64,000 nt of DNA from Citrifermentans bremense (GTDB lineage Bacteria > Desulfobacterota > Desulfuromonadia > Geobacterales > Geobacteraceae). Location: assembly GCF_014218275.1 (NCBI RefSeq), contig NZ_AP023213.1:2520001-2584000 (forward strand). The letters are read 5' to 3'. This document shows, piece by piece, positions 43,481 through 51,087 of this stretch. The notes under the pieces are model-generated. The model was given only the letters and a program-made list of their open reading frames with translations, was not told the DNA's origin and did not search any database. Position 1 is the stretch's first letter. Each line of letters starts with the position of its first letter. The position numbers were made by a program, and so were the translations under genes.

Positions 43481-43777
43481 ATGGATCACCAGTACAGCAT
43501 AATCAACCAATGCCTGCAGTTGCTGAAGCAGAGCGACATGCCGACCATAAAGAAGCTGCGCGTCGAGATACAGCTCATCCAGATGAAGCGGCTGCTTCTG
43601 AACGACAGCCTCACCAGCGACTTGGCGCGCAACGGATGCGGGGACGATGTCTTCGAGGGGCTCCTGAGCCAGATGCGCAGGATCTGCGGCGGGAGGCACG
43701 AGGGAGAAGCGCTAACCGACCTGATGGAGCGTATCGGCGGGATGTTGAACGTCCTCGGAGGGGACCACGCGCACTGA
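43481..43777 (+). CDS. small protein of unknown function (98 aa)
   Basis: I do not recognise a family. The 98-residue soluble helical protein starts MDHQYSIINQCLQLLKQSD and contains KLRVEIQLIQMKRLLLNDSL and two Cys in its second half (NGCGDDV and RICGGRH). It has a good ribosome binding site that lies within a 13-bp inverted repeat arm. Its 3' end overlaps the convergent kinase gene by 66 bases, so the two transcripts are antisense there. A link to the neighbouring signalling genes is possible but unproven. Confidence 0.75.
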   Translation: MDHQYSIINQCLQLLKQSDMPTIKKLRVEIQLIQMKRLLLNDSLTSDLARNGCGDDVFEGLLSQMRRICGGRHEGEALTDLMERIGGMLNVLGGDHAH

Positions 43778-45361
43778 GGCAGGCGAAGGGGCCGGGAGCA
43801 CCACGCGGGCCAGGGTCCCGCACCCCGGGGTCGAGTCGAGCAGCAAATGGCCGCCATGTTCGGCGACGATGTACTGCGAGATGTAGAGTCCGAGGCCGCT
43901 CCCTCCCCGGTCCAGCTTCGTGGAATAGAAGGGTTCGAAGAGCCGCCCCATGGTTTCCGGCGCAATGCCGACGCCGTTGTCCCTGACCTCCACCACCACC
44001 TCACCGCTATGGACGTCGTAGCGGGTAGTCAGATGCACCTCCCCCCGGCCGTCTTCCAGCGCCTGCATGGCGTTCAGCACCAGGTTGATCAGCACCTGCT
44101 CTATCTGCTGCTGGCTTCCCGGAATCACCGGAATCCCGGTGCCAAGGGTGGTCTTCAACTGCCCCCCCTTCTGGGTCTGGCAGGCGAGCACGGAAAGGGC
44201 GGCCGATACCGCGGCGTTCAGTTCCAGTTTCTGGTGCCGGTGCGCCTCTCCCCCCACCCCGTAGTCCCTGAGCCCCTGAACTACCCGCGCGATCCGCTCC
44301 GAGTTCTCGATGATCTTGCCGGCGTTCTCAGTCAAGGCAAGACGCGCCTTTTCGAATGGGACGCCGCCCAGGTAAAAGTCACCCTCCTCCTCGCGGACCC
44401 GGTCGAGCAGCGGAACGGCATCGCTCCACATCTTGCCGATCATGTGGCCGGAAAAGCGGATCGAGGCGTTGGGGTTGTTGATCTCGTGGGCCATGCTGGA
44501 GAGAAGCAGCCCCAGCGAGGTCATCTTATTGGTCTGGATCAGCCGCGCCATGACCCTTTTCTTCTCCTCCTGCACCTCCAGCCTCATCGCCTTCAGAAGC
44601 TCTTCCTGCAGTGCGACGTTCTCGAGTTCGCGCAGCTCAAGGGAAGCGGCCATGGCGTTGATGGCGTTCGCGGCGCGCCCCAGCTCGTCGTCCGCATCCA
44701 GCTCCACCCGCGCCGAGAGCTTGCCGGAACCTATCTCCTCGATCCCCCCCATAAGCTTGTTGAAGGAATAGGTGACCCGCTTGATCACCTGGTAGCTGAG
44801 CAGGGATACCGCCACCCAGAAGAGGGTCCCGATGCCAAGCGAAGCGGCGACCAGGTTGACCAGCCGCTCCCGTACCGCCGACATGTCGAGCATCAGGAGC
44901 ACATGGCCGATGACCCGCTGCTCTTCGGTCGTTTCGTGACCAAGGAGCACAGACTCGGGAGAAAGCACCGACCCGGGAGAGGTAATCGGTACGGCCATCT
45001 TGACGGTCTCCCCCTTGGGCACCTTCACCTTGCAGGCCTCGGCCACCACGATCTTTTGATGGTCGCTGATGGTCACCGAAACTACCGAAGACTGGCGCGA
45101 GGTCGCTTCGGCCAGCACGGACAGGGCCTCCTTGTTTTCCGCGAAAAGGGGGAGGCGCGCGTTTTGAGCGAGGATGGTGGCAAGAAGCCTCCCCTCGCGC
45201 TCCAGGGCGCCGCGGTAGGAGTTGATCTCGGTCAGCACGTAGAAAGTGGCGAAGGCCGCTGTCAAAAGCGCGATGATCCCGGTGAAGATCAGGTAGAGGC
45301 GGAAACGGAAGCTCTTGTTGAAGAGGGAGAGCCGGAACCTTCTTTTCAGTCTCAGCTTCAT
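43712..45361 (-). CDS. membrane sensor histidine kinase
   Basis: A 549-residue kinase starting MKLRLKRRFRLSLFNKSFRF. Helix 1 spans about 18-40, a periplasmic sensor about 45-165, helix 2 about 170-195 and HAMP about 195-250. A short coiled coil leads to the H-box MAHEINNPNASIRFSGHM, the N-box QVLINLVLNAMQALED, G1 DNGVGIAPE and G2 GSGLGLYIS. The start ATG overlaps the stop of the upstream binding protein (ATGA), so it is the last gene of a TonB receptor, binding protein, kinase unit. The NtrC-type regulator at 49690 is the likely partner. Confidence 0.93.
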   Translation of the reverse strand: MKLRLKRRFRLSLFNKSFRFRLYLIFTGIIALLTAAFATFYVLTEINSYRGALEREGRLLATILAQNARLPLFAENKEALSVLAEATSRQSSVVSVTISDHQKIVVAEACKVKVPKGETVKMAVPITSPGSVLSPESVLLGHETTEEQRVIGHVLLMLDMSAVRERLVNLVAASLGIGTLFWVAVSLLSYQVIKRVTYSFNKLMGGIEEIGSGKLSARVELDADDELGRAANAINAMAASLELRELENVALQEELLKAMRLEVQEEKKRVMARLIQTNKMTSLGLLLSSMAHEINNPNASIRFSGHMIGKMWSDAVPLLDRVREEEGDFYLGGVPFEKARLALTENAGKIIENSERIARVVQGLRDYGVGGEAHRHQKLELNAAVSAALSVLACQTQKGGQLKTTLGTGIPVIPGSQQQIEQVLINLVLNAMQALEDGRGEVHLTTRYDVHSGEVVVEVRDNGVGIAPETMGRLFEPFYSTKLDRGGSGLGLYISQYIVAEHGGHLLLDSTPGCGTLARVVLPAPSPASVRVVPSEDVQHPADTLHQVG

Positions 45362-46210
45362 CGGCCGGCCACGCTGGAAAGCTTCAGTTGGCGCACCACC
45401 CCGTCGTTGGACTTGGTTATCGCGCGGCGCGGCGGCACGGGGGGGATTTCGTCGACCGGTTTGCCGTCCAGGACGCTCAGCGCCATCTCCCCCAGTTGGC
45501 GGCCCGATGTCGAAACGGTCGATGGTGAGCGCCACGGCTCCGCCCATGGTGAGGTAGATGTCTGCGAAAGTGACCACCGGCACCCGTTCCCCTTGGGAGA
45601 AGAGGAAGTAAGCCTCGGTCGAGGCGGGCGTAACCGCCGTCGGGTCAGGGATCATCCAGAGGGCGTTGACTTTTCCCCGCAACGACTGCAGCATCCCCGG
45701 GGTCTCTTTGGCCGCGTGCACCTCGCGCAGCACGAGGTCGACGGGACTGCGGGAAGCCAGCGACAGGGCGCGCTTCAGGTACGCCCCGCTGCGGGAGGGA
45801 TCGTACACCACTCCCACCTTCGGGGTCCCCAGCGCCTCGAAAACGGAGAAGTAGCGGGACGGGTCGAGCAGCATGCTGACGCCGGTCGCAAACCGGCGGG
45901 GCTTTGGGTTCAAGGCCATCATGTAAAGCACCGGCGTGCTGTTTTGCTTCAGGGCGAGGTTCAGGGCGCGGTCCCCGACGGCGACGATCAGCTTCGGGTG
46001 CTCCTCGCGGGTGATGCGGGTCACGTCGGCCTCGGCGTATTCCGACAGGACCACCCTTCTCATGCTGACCCGGCACTCGCGCTTGAAGCCGTTCACCGCC
46101 TCTTCGTAACCCTTTTCGTGCAGCGACTGCAGCACCAGGACTTCGTAACAGAAGGCTGGAAGCGGTATGGACAACAGCGAGGCAATCAGGAGGAATCTCA
46201 GAAGTTGCAT
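45358..46210 (-). pseudogene. ABC-type substrate-binding protein (PF04392-like) with a single-base frameshift
   Basis: The start (MQLLRFLLIASLLSIPLPAFC) is a signal peptide, followed by a periplasmic binding fold: VLVLQSLHEKGYEEAVNGFKRE, LIVAVGDRALNLALKQNSTPVLYMM, PKVGVVYDPSRSG, VPVVTFADIYLTMGGAVALTIDRFDIG. At 45503-45505 one extra C shifts the frame. With one base fewer it continues GRQLGEMALSVLDGKPVDEI, the expected family end, and stops in an ATGA overlap with the kinase gene. As given, the frame instead runs into the kinase and would make an 832-residue fusion with a nonsense linker. A sequencing error or a real mutation are both possible. It overlaps the TonB gene end by 13 bases. Confidence 0.75.
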
Positions 46211-48039
46211 CTAACCCCCAGCTCCACCCAACGGCCCGGATTGCGGTAGACAGCGTCGAGGTACTGGTCGCCGTTGAAGAGGTTCCGTACTGAGGCGAAG
46301 ATCTCGAGGGAGGTCTCGGATAATTCCACCGTCTTTCTCAGGTGCAGGTCCCAGATGATAGCCCCGTACTTCCCGGTCCCAGGGTTATCCCAATCTATGA
46401 AACGGCCGTTCAGGTGAGCCTGGAAAGCTGAGTAGTCCTGATACCTGAGGCCAACCTGCACTGTATGCTTCGGGACGCCGTCGAGATGGGGGCCGCTGTC
46501 ACCATGGGTTCCCCGGATGTAGGTGTAGCCGGTGGTGAGAGAGGTCCGGAAAATAGGAATCGTCTTCGCCTCGATCTCGGCCCCTTGCTTCACGTGCCTC
46601 TCATAGGTGATGGCGCGCGTGCTGCCGGAGATGATGTCCCAGGTATCATTTCGGAACAGGGTCCCTTTAAGCCACAGCCCAGGGATGTCGCCTGTCTCGA
46701 ATCCAAGCTGTGAAGTCCACACCTTCTCCGTCGAGGCGGAGCGGTTCAGCGAGGTGAGACTGTACCCTCTAGACGTGTAGCCGCGCAAGACGCTGTTCTC
46801 GGTGAGCGCATAGGTGACGCCGAAACTGGGGCTGAAGTGGTCGCCTGCCGAACCGGTGCTGTCGAAGCGGGCACTGGGCGTGAGCGCAAAGCGCCCAAGG
46901 GTGAGGGTGTCGCTTAGGTAAAGACCGACCCGGTCCGCCCTTCGGTTAAGCAGATCGGCTAGAGCGATACCATTCACCATGTGAGCGCTGACGTGCTCGT
47001 AATCGATGCCGGCGGTGATCCTTTGCAGGTCATCCAGCCAGGAGAGCTGAAGGTTGCCTCCGAGGCGGGACTCCTCCGTCTCGAAAGCCATGGTGCCGAC
47101 TGTGCCAGGGGCAACCAACCCCTGTCTCAAAAGCTTGGCGCTCGACTCAGTCGTCACCAGTGCCCCCTCGACAAGCAGATGGTCCATGAGCTGGTACTGA
47201 CTGGCAAGCGTGGAAACGATCAGGGTACTGTCCGTGTTCGCCCGGTTCACCCCGGCGCCGAACATGCCGCTTTCGCCGTCCATGACGGCAGTGGTCAGAC
47301 TGAGCGAACCACGGGCCGGCAGGGCGTACTGGAGCTTTCCGTAGAAATTGTTCTTGTCGGCCATGTTGTTCGGCAAAAGGCCGTCGGAGCGAAGCTTTCC
47401 CCCGGTCAGGTAATAGCCGAAGCGATTATTGGTTCCGGTTAGCTCCGCCCGCGCATCGAGCGTTTCACGTTGTCCGTAGGAAGCCGAAACCACCCCTCCC
47501 ACCGGTCGCTCGGGGTCAGGAGACTTAGTGATTACGTTGATGACCCCCCCGAGCGCGTTTCCCCAGGAGGAGGAAGCCGCACCCTTCACGACCTCTACTC
47601 GCTCGATCAGCTGCACCGGAATGGAGCTGACATCCGGGAAGTTGTCGGCCAGGTTGTTGATGGGGACCCCGTCGAGAAGCACAAGGACATGGTTGTAGTT
47701 CGACCCTTGGACCTCGAAATTCACCGGGGTCCCGGGGGTGCGCGTCATCTCCAGTTGCACGCCGGTGACGTAACTTAGGACATCCGCCAGGGTGTGGGCG
47801 TTGATGGTGTCTATGTCCTGGGCGGTGACCACTGTTATATTCTCGGCGGTCTGCGATGCCGGACGCGGCGATCGGGTCCCTGAGACAACCTCGGTCCCCT
47901 CTCCGTTGTACAGCTCAAGGGAACGCAGGTCGTCGTCACAGTTTGCCGGAGGAGCGCACAGCATCATGGAAAGGGTGCAACCAAGCAGCACCAGCCTGGC
48001 TCTGACAGAGCAGAGGAGTGAATAGACACACGGTTGCAT
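46198..48039 (-). CDS. TonB-dependent outer-membrane receptor
   Basis: Outer-membrane active transporter of 613 residues. A signal peptide (LLGCTLSMMLCAPPANC) is followed by the plug domain (about 45-165) with ENITVVTAQDIDTINAHTLADVLSYVTGVQ, VLLDGVPINNL, and RVEVVKGAASSSWGNALGGVINVITK. The beta-barrel ends in GRWVELGVRCNF (C-terminal Phe). The TonB box is probably near GTEVVSG. The ATG at 48039 is preferred to the TTG one codon before. First gene of the unit with the binding protein and kinase, divergent from the geopeptide gene. The ligand is unknown; a sequence fit to vitamin B12- or siderophore-type receptors cannot be settled here. Confidence 0.94.
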   Translation of the reverse strand: MQPCVYSLLCSVRARLVLLGCTLSMMLCAPPANCDDDLRSLELYNGEGTEVVSGTRSPRPASQTAENITVVTAQDIDTINAHTLADVLSYVTGVQLEMTRTPGTPVNFEVQGSNYNHVLVLLDGVPINNLADNFPDVSSIPVQLIERVEVVKGAASSSWGNALGGVINVITKSPDPERPVGGVVSASYGQRETLDARAELTGTNNRFGYYLTGGKLRSDGLLPNNMADKNNFYGKLQYALPARGSLSLTTAVMDGESGMFGAGVNRANTDSTLIVSTLASQYQLMDHLLVEGALVTTESSAKLLRQGLVAPGTVGTMAFETEESRLGGNLQLSWLDDLQRITAGIDYEHVSAHMVNGIALADLLNRRADRVGLYLSDTLTLGRFALTPSARFDSTGSAGDHFSPSFGVTYALTENSVLRGYTSRGYSLTSLNRSASTEKVWTSQLGFETGDIPGLWLKGTLFRNDTWDIISGSTRAITYERHVKQGAEIEAKTIPIFRTSLTTGYTYIRGTHGDSGPHLDGVPKHTVQVGLRYQDYSAFQAHLNGRFIDWDNPGTGKYGAIIWDLHLRKTVELSETSLEIFASVRNLFNGDQYLDAVYRNPGRWVELGVRCNF

Positions 48040-48164
48040 CAAAGCCCATCCTTCTTAAAAAATTTAAATTTTATTATTGCAATGAAAATAATGTCATGCT
48101 AGTGTGACTTGTCCGTAAAGTCAAGCTCAAACAAATCCGACACGAAAAAAAGGGGGGCAAGACA

Positions 48165-48281
48165 ATGGCAAACGAGAAACTGGCACTGGAAGTATTGGAA
48201 GAGGGAAGAGACGCAGAGGTAACTACCGAAGGGTTGGGCTGCTGCTGGTCTTTGTTCATGTTCTACTATACCGACCAGTAG
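48165..48281 (+). CDS. geopeptide-type RiPP precursor peptide (38 aa)
   Basis: A short frame preceded by AGGGGGG seven bases before the ATG. The leader begins MANEKLALEVLEEGRDAEVT and is acidic, as is usual for leader peptides. The core after the Gly motif (TTEGLG) is CCWSLFMFYYTDQ, rich in Cys and aromatic residues. The radical SAM/SPASM maturase follows 95 bases downstream, with a strong hairpin between. I judge it the substrate of that enzyme. The modification chemistry (for instance thioether crosslinks from the two Cys) is not shown by sequence. Confidence 0.82.
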   Translation: MANEKLALEVLEEGRDAEVTTEGLGCCWSLFMFYYTDQ

Positions 48282-48293
48282 GACGCTGCTTGT

Positions 48294-48328
48294 GGCGGCA
48301 TACTCCTGTTGAGTGAGAGTATGCCGCC
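48294..48328 (+). terminator. 12-bp hairpin between precursor and maturase genes
   Basis: GGCGGCATACTC (48294-48305) and GAGTATGCCGCC (48317-48328) form a perfect stem with an 11-base loop. There is no T run, so partial termination or 3' end protection is likely, giving more precursor than maturase. Confidence 0.7.
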
Positions 48329-48376
48329 GCTGCAAAGTCTCATGAATGCAATTACACCCGACACAGGACTCCTGCC

Positions 48377-49675
48377 ATGCACCTGTCACGCTACCTGAAA
48401 GTTTTCCCGTCCCTCGACAAGCCCGACCACTTCCTGCTCTACTCCACATTGCGCGGTTCCATGGTCGCAGTCCCGGCGGCAACCCTGCAGGCACTGCAGC
48501 AGGGAGAGGGCTTCACAGCGGAGGCGGAGACACTTTCCAGGCTCGGCATGCTGGTTCCGGACCCGGACACGGAAAAGGAGCAGATGCGCGGCCTGCTGGA
48601 GCGGGCCAACGGTCGCAGCCGCAACTTCAAGGCGATGGTGGTGCTGAACCTCGACTGCAACCTCGACTGCGGCTACTGCTACGAGGGGCAGTTCAGGGGC
48701 GGGCACTACATGTCCGGGGCGACAGCTGACCTTTTGGTGCAGACCTTTTCACGAGATAGGATCTGCCAGGGGTGGGACCTCACCCTCTCCTTCTACGGCG
48801 GAGAGCCTCTCCTGTCGCTCGACCTGATCGAGAGGATCTCCAGGCCGCTGCAGCGCATGGCCCGCGAAAAGGGGGTCAAATTCGGCTTCAACCTAGTGAC
48901 CAATGGGACCCTGCTAACAAGGGAAGTGGCTGAGAAACTGGTGCCGCTTGGTCTGACCGGCGCAAAGTTCACCCTGGACGGCCCCCCCGAGATCCACAAC
49001 GGGGAGCGACCTTTCGCCTCTGGTGCCGGCAGCTTCGACGCGATCGTCGACAACATGGCCTCGATTTGGGATCTGGTTCCTATCAACCTGGGAGGAAATT
49101 TCAGGGAATGCAACTACCTCGAGTTTCCGCGCCTGCTCGATCTTTTGGTTTCACGCGGTATCACCCCAGAGAAACTGCGCCACGTCCAGTTCACCCCGGT
49201 CACACCACAGGCAGGCTGTGCGGACCAAAGCTCCGGGTGCGCCTCCTCCGACGCTCCTTGGCTGGTAGACGCGCTCATGTACCTGCGCGGAGAGATCCTC
49301 TCCAGGGGGTTCAAGACCTCCAGGCCCGGGGTGTCGGCTTGTGTGGTGGAGTTGGAAGACAACATCGTGGTGAACTGCGAGGGGAAGCTCTACAAGTGCC
49401 CTGCGTTCATGGGGTGGGAGGGTTTGAGCGTGGGGAGCTTGGCCGAAGGGATGAAGCAGTATCACGCTTCCCACTGCATCGGCAACTGGCAGACGGAGGA
49501 GTGCCTCGAGTGCTGCTACCTCCCGTTATGCTTCGGCGGCTGTCGCTTCCTCACCCTCAGCCAGGGAAAGCTGATTTCCGATGTGGACTGCAAGCGCCAG
49601 TTCCTGGACGCCACCTTGGAGCGCATACTGCAGCAAAACCTCACCTGCCCCGCTGCCGGAACAACTCCGGCCTAG
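48377..49675 (+). CDS. radical SAM/SPASM peptide maturase (geopeptide type)
   Basis: Peptide-modifying enzyme of 432 residues. An N-terminal domain of about 90 residues resembles a peptide-binding region. The radical SAM core starts with LNLDCNLDCGYCYEG (CxxxCxxC), then FYGGEPLLS, LVTNGTLLT and FTLDGPPEIHNGERPF. The C-terminal SPASM domain binds further Fe-S clusters through VVNCEGKLYKCPAFMG and ECLECCYLPLCFGGCRF, with a final DCKRQ. It matches the geopeptide maturase description that I know from Geobacter-like genomes. Its end faces the NtrC-type gene with 14 bases between stops. Confidence 0.92.
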   Translation: MHLSRYLKVFPSLDKPDHFLLYSTLRGSMVAVPAATLQALQQGEGFTAEAETLSRLGMLVPDPDTEKEQMRGLLERANGRSRNFKAMVVLNLDCNLDCGYCYEGQFRGGHYMSGATADLLVQTFSRDRICQGWDLTLSFYGGEPLLSLDLIERISRPLQRMAREKGVKFGFNLVTNGTLLTREVAEKLVPLGLTGAKFTLDGPPEIHNGERPFASGAGSFDAIVDNMASIWDLVPINLGGNFRECNYLEFPRLLDLLVSRGITPEKLRHVQFTPVTPQAGCADQSSGCASSDAPWLVDALMYLRGEILSRGFKTSRPGVSACVVELEDNIVVNCEGKLYKCPAFMGWEGLSVGSLAEGMKQYHASHCIGNWQTEECLECCYLPLCFGGCRFLTLSQGKLISDVDCKRQFLDATLERILQQNLTCPAAGTTPA

Positions 49676-49689
49676 CTCAGCTCCCGCCC

Positions 49690-51087
49690 CTACTGGCGCT
49701 CCTGCTTCAACCTCTTGTTCAAGGTGGGGCGCGCAAGCCCAAGAAGTTCCGCTGCCTGCGTCTGGTTGCCGCCGGTAAGTTTCATCGCCTCGGCGATCAG
49801 GTACTCCTCTACCTGCAGCACGGTTGGAAACTTCCCGAACAAGGCGAACAGCGGATTGCCGGCGTCAACCTGTTCCGGAACCAGGGCAGGAGCGGCCGCT
49901 ACCCCTGGGAAGTCGGAGAGCGTGAGCGGCTGCCCCTCGTTGCAGGTCACCGCGTGGTGCACCATGTTGTACAGTTCCCGGACGTTGCCCGGGAAGCGGT
50001 ACTGCTCCAGCGCAGCGATCACGTTGTGCGGAACTGCGGGGACCGCTTTCCCCTGCTGCAGCGCTATGTTGTGCGCGAAGTAGTCGACCAGGGGACCCAC
50101 GTCCTCCAGGCGCTCCCTCAGGGGGGGTACCCGGAATTCGTGGGCGCAGAGGCGGAAGTAGAGGTCGTTGCGGAAACTTCCGGCTGACCTGAGCGCGGCG
50201 AAGTCCATGTTGGAGGCGGCGACGATGCGCGCGTCGCTTTTCAGGAGCAGGTCCGAACCGATCCGGTAGTACTCCCGCTCCTGCAAAAGCCGCAGCAGTT
50301 TGATCTGCGAGGCGAGGTTCAGGTCCCCTATTTCGTCCAGAAAGAGGGTCCCGCCTGCTGCCGCGGCGATGAGGCCGTCACGCTTGCTGTCGGCGCCGGT
50401 GAAGGCCCCTTTCTTGTGACCGAAGAGGGTGTCGGAGAACATGAAGTCGTCAAGCCCGGCGGCGTTGAGGGAGATGAAAGGGCCGGGGACGCCGGAGACA
50501 TCGTGGACTGCGCGCGCCAGAAGCTCCTTCCCAACACCCGTCTCCCCTGTGATCAGCACCGGCAGGCGCGAGGAAGCGATCGCCTCTATGTACTGGAAGA
50601 TGCCACGCATCTTTTTCGAGGTGGCGATGATCCCGGCGAAAGCGTCCGGGTTTCGCAGCGTGTCCGCCAGCAGGTAGTCCTTGAGCATCAGGTTCTGCCG
50701 CCCAAGCTCGCTTACCTGGAGCGCCTTTTTCACGCTGGCCACCAGCCGGTTCGGATCGACCGGCTTGGTAAGGAAATCGAAGGCACCCTGCTGCATGCAG
50801 GCGACCGCGGTCTCGACGTCTCCCATGGCGGTCATCACGATCACCGGAATCTCCGGGTGCTCGGAGGTCAGGGCGTGCAGTATCTCGGCTCCGGAAACAT
50901 GCGGCATGACCCAGTCCAGGATCACCGAGCTAACCTTGTGTTCCTTCACATAGCCAACCACCTCCCTGCTGTCCGACAGCGTCGCCACCTGCTGCACATC
51001 GCTTGAGGCGAGAAGCAGCGACACCTCGGTAAGGATCCCGGGCTCGTCATCCACTAAAAGCATATGTTGTTGTGTCGACGACTTCAC
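49690..51087 (-). CDS. NtrC-family sigma-54-dependent response regulator
   Basis: A 465-residue activator. The receiver (1-120) has LLVDDEPGILTE, phospho-Asp in VILDWVMPHVSGAEIL and Lys in FLTKPVDPN. The AAA+ domain (about 150-385) has Walker A GETGVGKELLAR, the sigma-54 contact loop GAFTGAD and Walker B GGTLFLDEIGDL. The C-terminal helix-turn-helix is QTQAAELLGLARPTLNKRLKQ. It probably receives phosphate from the kinase at 43712 and drives sigma-54 promoters nearby, for example the one at 43419. No convincing sigma-54 site is seen before the geopeptide gene. Confidence 0.94.
   Translation of the reverse strand: MKSSTQQHMLLVDDEPGILTEVSLLLASSDVQQVATLSDSREVVGYVKEHKVSSVILDWVMPHVSGAEILHALTSEHPEIPVIVMTAMGDVETAVACMQQGAFDFLTKPVDPNRLVASVKKALQVSELGRQNLMLKDYLLADTLRNPDAFAGIIATSKKMRGIFQYIEAIASSRLPVLITGETGVGKELLARAVHDVSGVPGPFISLNAAGLDDFMFSDTLFGHKKGAFTGADSKRDGLIAAAAGGTLFLDEIGDLNLASQIKLLRLLQEREYYRIGSDLLLKSDARIVAASNMDFAALRSAGSFRNDLYFRLCAHEFRVPPLRERLEDVGPLVDYFAHNIALQQGKAVPAVPHNVIAALEQYRFPGNVRELYNMVHHAVTCNEGQPLTLSDFPGVAAAPALVPEQVDAGNPLFALFGKFPTVLQVEEYLIAEAMKLTGGNQTQAAELLGLARPTLNKRLKQERQ

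What the first reader, a model, noticed from the sequence alone, without database searches (positions are those of the whole stretch)
48043..51087. Geopeptide RiPP locus wired to a TonB receptor and a two-component system
The sequence shows a 38-residue precursor with core CCWSLFMFYYTDQ, a radical SAM/SPASM maturase directly behind it, a divergent TonB receptor - binding protein - kinase unit, and an NtrC-type regulator convergent to the maturase. Radical SAM maturases next to short Cys-containing peptides are established RiPP architecture, and I know the geopeptide name for this type. That the receptor, binding protein and kinase sense or import the mature peptide, or a metal it binds, is inference. 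There is no protease or ABC exporter beside the precursor, so export is unexplained.
Basis: partly seen in the sequence, partly recalled or inferred. Interest (0 to 1): 0.85.

Follow-up and report, generated by a model that had tools for sequence, protein, structure and literature searches.

The report
Modified peptide with its matched receptor
A Geobacter-type bacterium carries a gene for a tiny chemically modified peptide together with the enzyme that modifies it and an outer-membrane receptor that travels and is swapped with it, which looks like a peptide messaging (or metal-fetching) system whose function nobody seems to have worked out yet.

Summary
Confirmed, with one refinement. The window holds a 38-residue precursor (core CCWSLFMFYYTDQ) and a geopeptide radical SAM/SPASM maturase (TIGR04280, 631 bits, cut-off 400), a divergent TonB receptor, binding protein and kinase, and a convergent NtrC-type regulator. 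The binding protein is frameshifted here and reads as one ORF with the kinase. Outside the genus, TonB receptor and binding protein each accompany 32 of 32 full-flank maturase loci, a similar kinase 27, the regulator 18. In a later phylum-wide set the receptor accompanies 18 of 18 new loci, the binding protein 17, the regulator only 2. New: in one pair of sister genomes kinase, binding protein, regulator and flanks are 96-100% identical, while receptor, precursor and maturase fall together to 63%, about 40% and 67%, with sharp edges; trees reject the sisterhood for receptor and maturase. That looks like a swapped specificity cassette. Best reading: the receptor takes up the mature peptide, and binding protein plus kinase report it. 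Signalling rather than metal scavenging is inference; export is unexplained.

The parts
48077..48103 (+). promoter-like stretch TTGCAA-N(15-17)-TGCTAGT before the precursor, sigma-70-like with extended -10
   Evidence: conserved by eye (TTGCA ... TGYTAAT) in the alignment of 17 genus loci (two loci with double precursors printed apart); no -24/-12 element in the window
48165..48281 (+). geopeptide-like precursor, 38 aa
   Evidence: TIGR04229 E 6.7e-4, 19.4 bits, under cut-off; 67 of 68 homologous loci carry such a peptide
48186..48206 (+). leader motif LEVLEEG (residues 8-14), related to consensus LEVLDEG
   Evidence: alignment A3 of 23 precursors
48240..48278 (+). core CCWSLFMFYYTDQ; CC is invariant, the rest varies
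   Evidence: boundary of leader and core is inference
48377..49675 (+). geopeptide radical SAM/SPASM maturase (TIGR04280), 432 aa
   Evidence: predicted fold closest to CteB (5why/5wgg), Z 26
48377..48616 (+). N-terminal RRE-like part of the maturase (three strands, then helices), presumed leader binder
   Evidence: predicted structure; CteB alignment begins at residue 4
46198..48042 (-). TonB-dependent outer-membrane receptor (start TTG 48042 or ATG 48039)
   Evidence: Plug and barrel domains
45358..46210 (-). PF04392-type periplasmic binding protein, frameshifted within 45483-45512
   Evidence: intact homologue is PF04392 over cut-off
43712..45361 (-). sensor histidine kinase, 549 aa (sCache-like sensor, HAMP, ATPase)
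   Evidence: separate gene in relatives
49690..51087 (-). NtrC-type response regulator
   Evidence: 19 of 19 genus loci, only 18 of 32 and 2 of 18 elsewhere

Best explanation
A ribosomally made peptide that the cell recognises through its own outer-membrane receptor. The leader (LEVLDEG-like) is bound by the RRE-like N-terminus of the maturase, which modifies the core at or next to the invariant Cys-Cys, most likely making a Cys thioether as CteB-type enzymes do. The leader is removed and the peptide leaves the cell by a route not encoded here. The TonB receptor takes up the mature peptide, the PF04392 binding protein holds it in the periplasm and presents it to the histidine kinase, and where an NtrC-type regulator is present that changes transcription. 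Receptor, precursor and maturase form the specificity unit; binding protein, kinase and regulator are the constant relay. Shown by sequence: the parts, their conserved association, the joint replacement of the three-gene block in one genome pair. Inferred: binding, uptake, relay, chemistry, export.
For: Association: 19 of 19 genus loci and 32 of 32 full-flank loci outside it have the TonB receptor; binding protein 32 of 32 outside (18 of 19 inside, the window's being merged with the kinase by the frameshift), kinase 27 of 32. Later set: all 22 over-cut-off places that were not in the first set; one is a duplicate (L142 = L113) and three have under 2 kb upstream; of the other 18, receptor 18, binding protein 17, precursor 17, kinase 14; receptor codirectional in 16 of 18. 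Seven maturases under the family cut-off have no such binding protein (0 of 7) and one strong and two weak TonB hits. Background: only 4 TonB plugs in the 4.46-Mb genome. Block swap: in L073/L075 kinase 98, binding protein 96, regulator 99, flanks 96-100% identical, but receptor 63, leader 36, core 42, maturase 67; edges at about -2300 and +1300; AU test rejects the pair for receptor (6e-5) and maturase (5e-7) while the kinase tree joins them at 100/99. In another pair (L046/L048) kinase to maturase stay 83-97% identical while what lies outside does not align. Receptor-only loci nested among linked ones in the binding-protein tree (5 label changes, shuffled mean 18). Core divergence tracks receptor divergence beyond maturase divergence outside the genus (partial r 0.375, p 0.002, n 42), the leader less (0.167, p 0.028). 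No other neighbour family in more than 7 of 49 outside loci.
Against: Only one pair shows a clean swap, and it was named after its profile was seen. The receptor is not unusually variable overall: against the receptor of the maturase-free locus it is less conserved in 54 of 91 genome pairs (means 63.8 and 66.9%). With the genus included the core-receptor correlation on core properties was not significant (partial r 0.08, p 0.085, n 60), and without a divergent clade the core-binding-protein one vanishes (0.082, p 0.156). The binding protein did not change when the peptide did, so it cannot read the variable core closely. NtrC-type regulator in only 2 of 18 phylum-wide loci; no sigma-54 site at the precursor in the window. 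No exporter or protease seen. The window's own binding protein is broken.
Confidence: 0.55

Rival explanations
1. Metal-fetching peptide (works like methanobactin or a siderophore): the Cys-Cys site, modified or not, binds a soft metal outside the cell and the TonB receptor brings the complex back; kinase and regulator sense supply.
For: TonB receptors classically carry metal complexes; CC is invariant in 67 of 67 precursors found; joint swapping of receptor and biosynthesis is also known for siderophores (recalled: pyoverdine/FpvA).
Against: No inner-membrane permease or ATPase was recognised among the shared neighbours (by eye); the binding protein sits with a kinase; its closest solved relatives are TrpX with L-Trp and CD0873, not metal binders.
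Confidence: 0.22
2. Receptor, binding protein and kinase sense some other outside compound and merely switch on the peptide, which acts as a toxin or redox factor.
For: Receptor-binding-protein pairs occur without maturase: 34 of 90 strong binding-protein hits lie over 9 kb from a maturase or on another contig, and all 20 of these that were fetched have a TonB receptor next to them.
Against: Receptor changed together with precursor and maturase in L073/L075 while kinase and binding protein did not; no immunity gene recurs.
Confidence: 0.13
3. Antimicrobial peptide whose neighbouring TonB receptor is a target, a resistance allele or a re-uptake port.
For: Small modified Cys peptide with fast-changing core; polymorphic receptor.
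Against: No exporter, protease or immunity gene seen in the recurring neighbours; kinase linkage.
Confidence: 0.07
4. The genes are neighbours by inheritance only, with no shared function.
For: Within the genus the surroundings are syntenic.
Against: Outside the genus flanking genes differ and the receptor is on the other strand in 16 of 18 phylum-wide loci, yet the set persists.
Confidence: 0.03

Closest known systems
Geopeptide / geopeptide radical SAM maturase (NCBIfam TIGR04229 / TIGR04280)
   Same: The maturase is a clear member; the precursor has the same build.
   Different: The precursor is under the model's cut-off; the NCBIfam names state no function, and the receptor/binding protein/kinase partners are not part of those models.
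CteB and related thioether-forming SPASM maturases (ranthipeptides, sactipeptides)
   Same: Best sequence match in the PDB (5wgg, E 2e-30) and best predicted-fold match (Z 26.1, rmsd 4.3 over 377 residues); RRE, radical SAM and SPASM layout.
   Different: Geopeptides have only the adjacent CC fixed and no fixed acceptor residue; the product is unknown.
agr and ComQXP peptide pheromone systems (recalled)
   Same: Short precursor, modifying enzyme, sensor kinase; processing enzyme, peptide and receptor vary together as specificity groups.
   Different: Gram-positive, no outer membrane; there the kinase itself is the variable receptor, here the outer-membrane receptor varies and the kinase does not.
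Methanobactin and pyoverdine systems (recalled)
   Same: Peptide product with a cognate TonB receptor; receptor and biosynthesis genes vary together in pyoverdine.
   Different: Other biosynthetic enzymes; no binding protein-kinase pair as constant partner.
Binding-protein/kinase sensors such as XylFII-LytS (5xsd) and LuxPQ (LuxPQ recalled)
   Same: A periplasmic binding protein next to a kinase, without its own permease; shared type I binding-protein fold (Z 16.1 for 5xsd).
   Different: Coupled here to an outer-membrane receptor and a modified peptide; the complex is not tested.

Membership tests
TIGR04280 geopeptide maturase | score over curated cut-off (400 bits) | tested here: met
   631 bits
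TIGR04280 geopeptide maturase | CX3CX2C radical SAM motif and full SPASM cysteine set | tested here: met
   invariant in 23 aligned relatives
TIGR04229 geopeptide | score over curated cut-off (30 bits) | tested here: not met
   19.4 bits; so I call it geopeptide-like. 18 of 23 related precursors hit the model at E <= 1 but it is over cut-off in only 9 of 77 genomes of the order
RiPP | short precursor gene beside a modifying enzyme, conserved as a pair | tested here: met
   67 of 68 loci, 17 of 18 phylum-wide
RiPP | modified, leader-free product | not testable with these tools
   needs mass spectrometry
Ranthipeptide/sactipeptide | Cys thioether made by the maturase | not testable with these tools
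   fold like CteB is a resemblance only
Peptide pheromone system (agr/ComQXP-like) | peptide, enzyme and receptor vary together while the relay stays constant | tested here: met
   one clear pair, L073/L075
Peptide pheromone system (agr/ComQXP-like) | secretion and dose-dependent self-response | not testable with these tools
   no exporter seen among recurring neighbours
Methanobactin | MbnB-type (PF05114) biosynthesis enzyme | tested here: inconclusive
   not among Pfam hits (E <= 0.01) of the eight window proteins scanned; the rest of the genome was not searched for it
PF04392 binding proteins | over Pfam cut-off | tested here: met
   6 of 6 intact homologues scanned; the window's frameshifted copy scored 24.7 against 25.9

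The most novel reading that the evidence does not exclude
A Gram-negative peptide pheromone with pherotypes: a radical-SAM-modified Cys-Cys peptide that re-enters through its own TonB receptor and is read by a binding protein and kinase; receptor, precursor and maturase are exchanged between species as one specificity cassette, and receptor-only copies of the module (as at 3.39 Mb in this genome) listen in on peptides that the cell itself does not make, like LuxR solos.
Probability: 0.4. Interest if true: 0.92.

Novelty: new variant of a known kind. Interest (0 to 1): 0.78.

Why it matters
If true, it is a modified-peptide signal that passes a Gram-negative outer membrane by active TonB-dependent uptake, with specificity set at the outer membrane and a constant relay behind it. 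It would give Geobacter-type metal reducers a peptide language with dialects and eavesdroppers, and it makes that directly testable by swapping three genes between two sister species. If the metal reading is right instead, it is a new class of ribosomal metal carrier in metal-reducing bacteria. Either way it gives a named but functionally empty maturase family a receptor.

Tried and rejected
Sigma-54 control of the precursor: a first scan had an indexing fault and could find nothing; the corrected scan found no site in the window and 21 sites over 68 upstream stretches, against about 13 in mononucleotide shuffles, so no clear support. The genus has a sigma-70-like motif instead.

Exporter or protease: the 25 largest neighbour clusters of 49 outside-genus loci, read by eye and not scanned with Pfam, showed none; the one PF03412 peptidase in the genome is far away at 1.93 Mb.

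A conserved hairpin before the precursor in outside-genus loci: weak (mean z -0.92 over 47; 14 of 47 under -1.5), no Rfam match in 8 loci, no consensus fold in my alignment. Left open.

Core-receptor co-variation: positive outside the genus, not significant with the genus included; permutation does not fully remove shared ancestry, so I use it only as support.

Defence: PADLOC hits were generic radical SAM (viperin-like) and AAA matches, rejected. Plasmids: no DNA match.

Literature: 'geopeptide' as a word, 0 papers; TIGR04280 and TIGR04229, 0 occurrences (its 19 listed papers match 'geopeptide' inside other words, and one search was a like search for 'geopep'). Other searches gave nothing on this system in their listings. 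Only the open-licence PMC library was searched.
Full report
What is there. The maturase is a TIGR04280 member with its full set of cluster cysteines. The precursor is geopeptide-like but under the TIGR04229 cut-off. The binding protein is interrupted by a one-base difference within 45483-45512, which merges it with the kinase ORF; in the nearest relative (L073) the two genes overlap by ATGA. Whether this is a real mutation or a sequencing error cannot be told here.

The precursor family. I examined 68 maturases in 66 loci (after dropping L055, L062 and L115 for missing 5' ends and L118-L120 for low identity; broken maturases in L063-L065 were counted once each). A peptide of 27-42 residues with an LEVLDEG-like leader and an invariant CC followed by a short variable tail lies upstream of 67; L067 ends 71 bases upstream. 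Two loci, L088 and L089, have two precursors. In alignment A3 of 23 precursors only the start Met, one Gly and the CC are invariant. Distant phylum members often end in P-hydrophobic-R (by eye).

Partners. With 5.5 kb upstream and 4.5 kb downstream available, 32 loci outside the genus all carry the TonB receptor and the binding protein; 27 carry a kinase similar to the window's, 18 an NtrC-type regulator, 17 all four. Binding-protein matches in five of these loci are weak (about 30-46 bits). In the genus 19 of 19 have receptor, kinase and regulator. Own-genome background is four TonB plugs, so a chance neighbour within 3 kb on either side would be about 0.5% (my arithmetic). As a later test I took all 22 over-cut-off places from 297 phylum genomes that were not in the first set. 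Of the other 18: receptor 18 (433-744 bits), binding protein 17 (L145 has 2.3 kb upstream; L143 is cut at the contig end), kinase of 100 bits or more 14, precursor 17 (L153 on the other strand, L156 1.8 kb upstream, L160 without the usual motif, L158 none), NtrC-type regulator of 200 bits or more only 2. In 16 of 18 the receptor is codirectional with the maturase, unlike the window. Seven maturases below the family cut-off lack the binding protein (0 of 7); one has a strong and two a weak TonB hit. So receptor and binding protein belong to the geopeptide system; kinases are common genes, so their link is less telling; the NtrC-type regulator is a lineage-specific partner.

The swapped block. 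Kinase, binding protein, regulator and flanking genes are 96-100% identical, but receptor is 63, leader 36, core 42 and maturase 67%. Nucleotide identity falls from 91-100% outside to 44-75% inside, between about -2300 and +1300 relative to the maturase start. For receptor and maturase the AU test rejects the pair as a clade (p 6e-5 and 5e-7), and L073 groups with the window instead; the pair was named after the profile was seen. The same two genomes keep 86% identity in the receptor of their maturase-free locus. I read this as replacement of a receptor-precursor-maturase block. Over 91 genome pairs, however, the geopeptide receptor is not generally more variable than the other one (less conserved in 54 of 91). 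Conversely, L046 and L048 keep kinase to maturase at 83-97% in surroundings that do not align.

Receptor-only copies. Of 90 strong binding-protein hits in 58 genomes, 34 are not within 9 kb of a maturase on the same contig (some are contig ends). I fetched 20 of the 34: all have a TonB receptor beside them, 16 a kinase of 100 bits or more, none a maturase. L138 has a precursor near its contig end and is probably just cut. In the binding-protein tree the label needs 5 changes against 18.0 in shuffles. The genus's second locus, at 3.39 Mb in this genome (L121), is nested beside a linked row (L034), which suggests loss of peptide and maturase; the direction is inference. In G008 against G015 the flanks match at about 78-95%, the receptor at about 50-65%, and precursor and maturase are absent from G008.

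Co-variation. Outside the genus (n 42) core sequence distance tracks receptor distance beyond maturase distance (partial r 0.375, p 0.002); the leader does so less (0.167, p 0.028). For the binding protein the values are 0.258 and 0.028, but without a divergent clade (n 36) the binding-protein signal goes (0.082) and the leader-receptor one rises (0.246). With all 60 loci, core properties gave no significant partial correlation. I treat this as weak support for the receptor and none for the binding protein.

Structures. Predicted maturase (mean pLDDT 87) matches CteB best (Z 26.1; sequence E 2e-30), with an RRE-like N-terminus. Passages of PMC8326336 describe CteB's RRE and its thioether product. 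The intact binding protein of L093 (mean pLDDT 89) matches CD0873, a Vibrio protein and TrpX with L-Trp (Z 24-26), and at fold level XylFII of the XylFII-LytS pair (Z 16.1). That CD0873 binds tyrosine is recalled.

Mechanism. Uptake of the mature peptide by the TonB receptor is the best-supported step (I would say about 0.75). Relay by binding protein and kinase is likely given no permease among the recurring neighbours (by eye). Signalling versus metal retrieval is open. The constant binding protein behind a swapped peptide suggests that it reads the shared modified Cys-Cys part, or something else, rather than the variable tail. Export is unexplained.

Literature seen: passages only of PMC3023750, PMC3543383 and PMC8326336; listings otherwise. 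No paper in the searched library uses the word geopeptide or the two model accessions. agr, ComQXP, LuxPQ, methanobactin, pyoverdine and LuxR solos are from recall.

Noticed in passing
window 45483-45512: One-base difference that frameshifts the binding protein and merges it with the kinase ORF; real mutation or sequencing error unknown.
   Followed up: partly
L121 5880-8654 (own genome 3.39 Mb): Second TonB receptor and binding protein with a divergent kinase and no maturase or precursor; similar loci in other members of the genus.
   Followed up: partly
L042, L044, L051, L053, L058, L061, L063, L069, L070 upstream of the precursor: Short hairpins of differing sequence, 20-35 bases before the precursor's start, in many outside-genus loci; no Rfam match in eight loci searched (L042, L044, L051, L053, L058, L063, L069, L070).
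   Followed up: partly
L088, L089, L165; G349 around 2273070-2276999: Two precursors in tandem, and four TIGR04229 peptides within 4 kb in G349.
   Followed up: no
L166, L167: More distant SPASM maturases beside a sigma-54 regulator (335-347 bits) and a weakly similar TonB receptor: a possible sister system.
   Followed up: no
L144-L155 precursors: Cores of distant phylum members end in a recurring P-hydrophobic-R (MPIR, APFR, IPIR, MPLR and so on).
   Followed up: no
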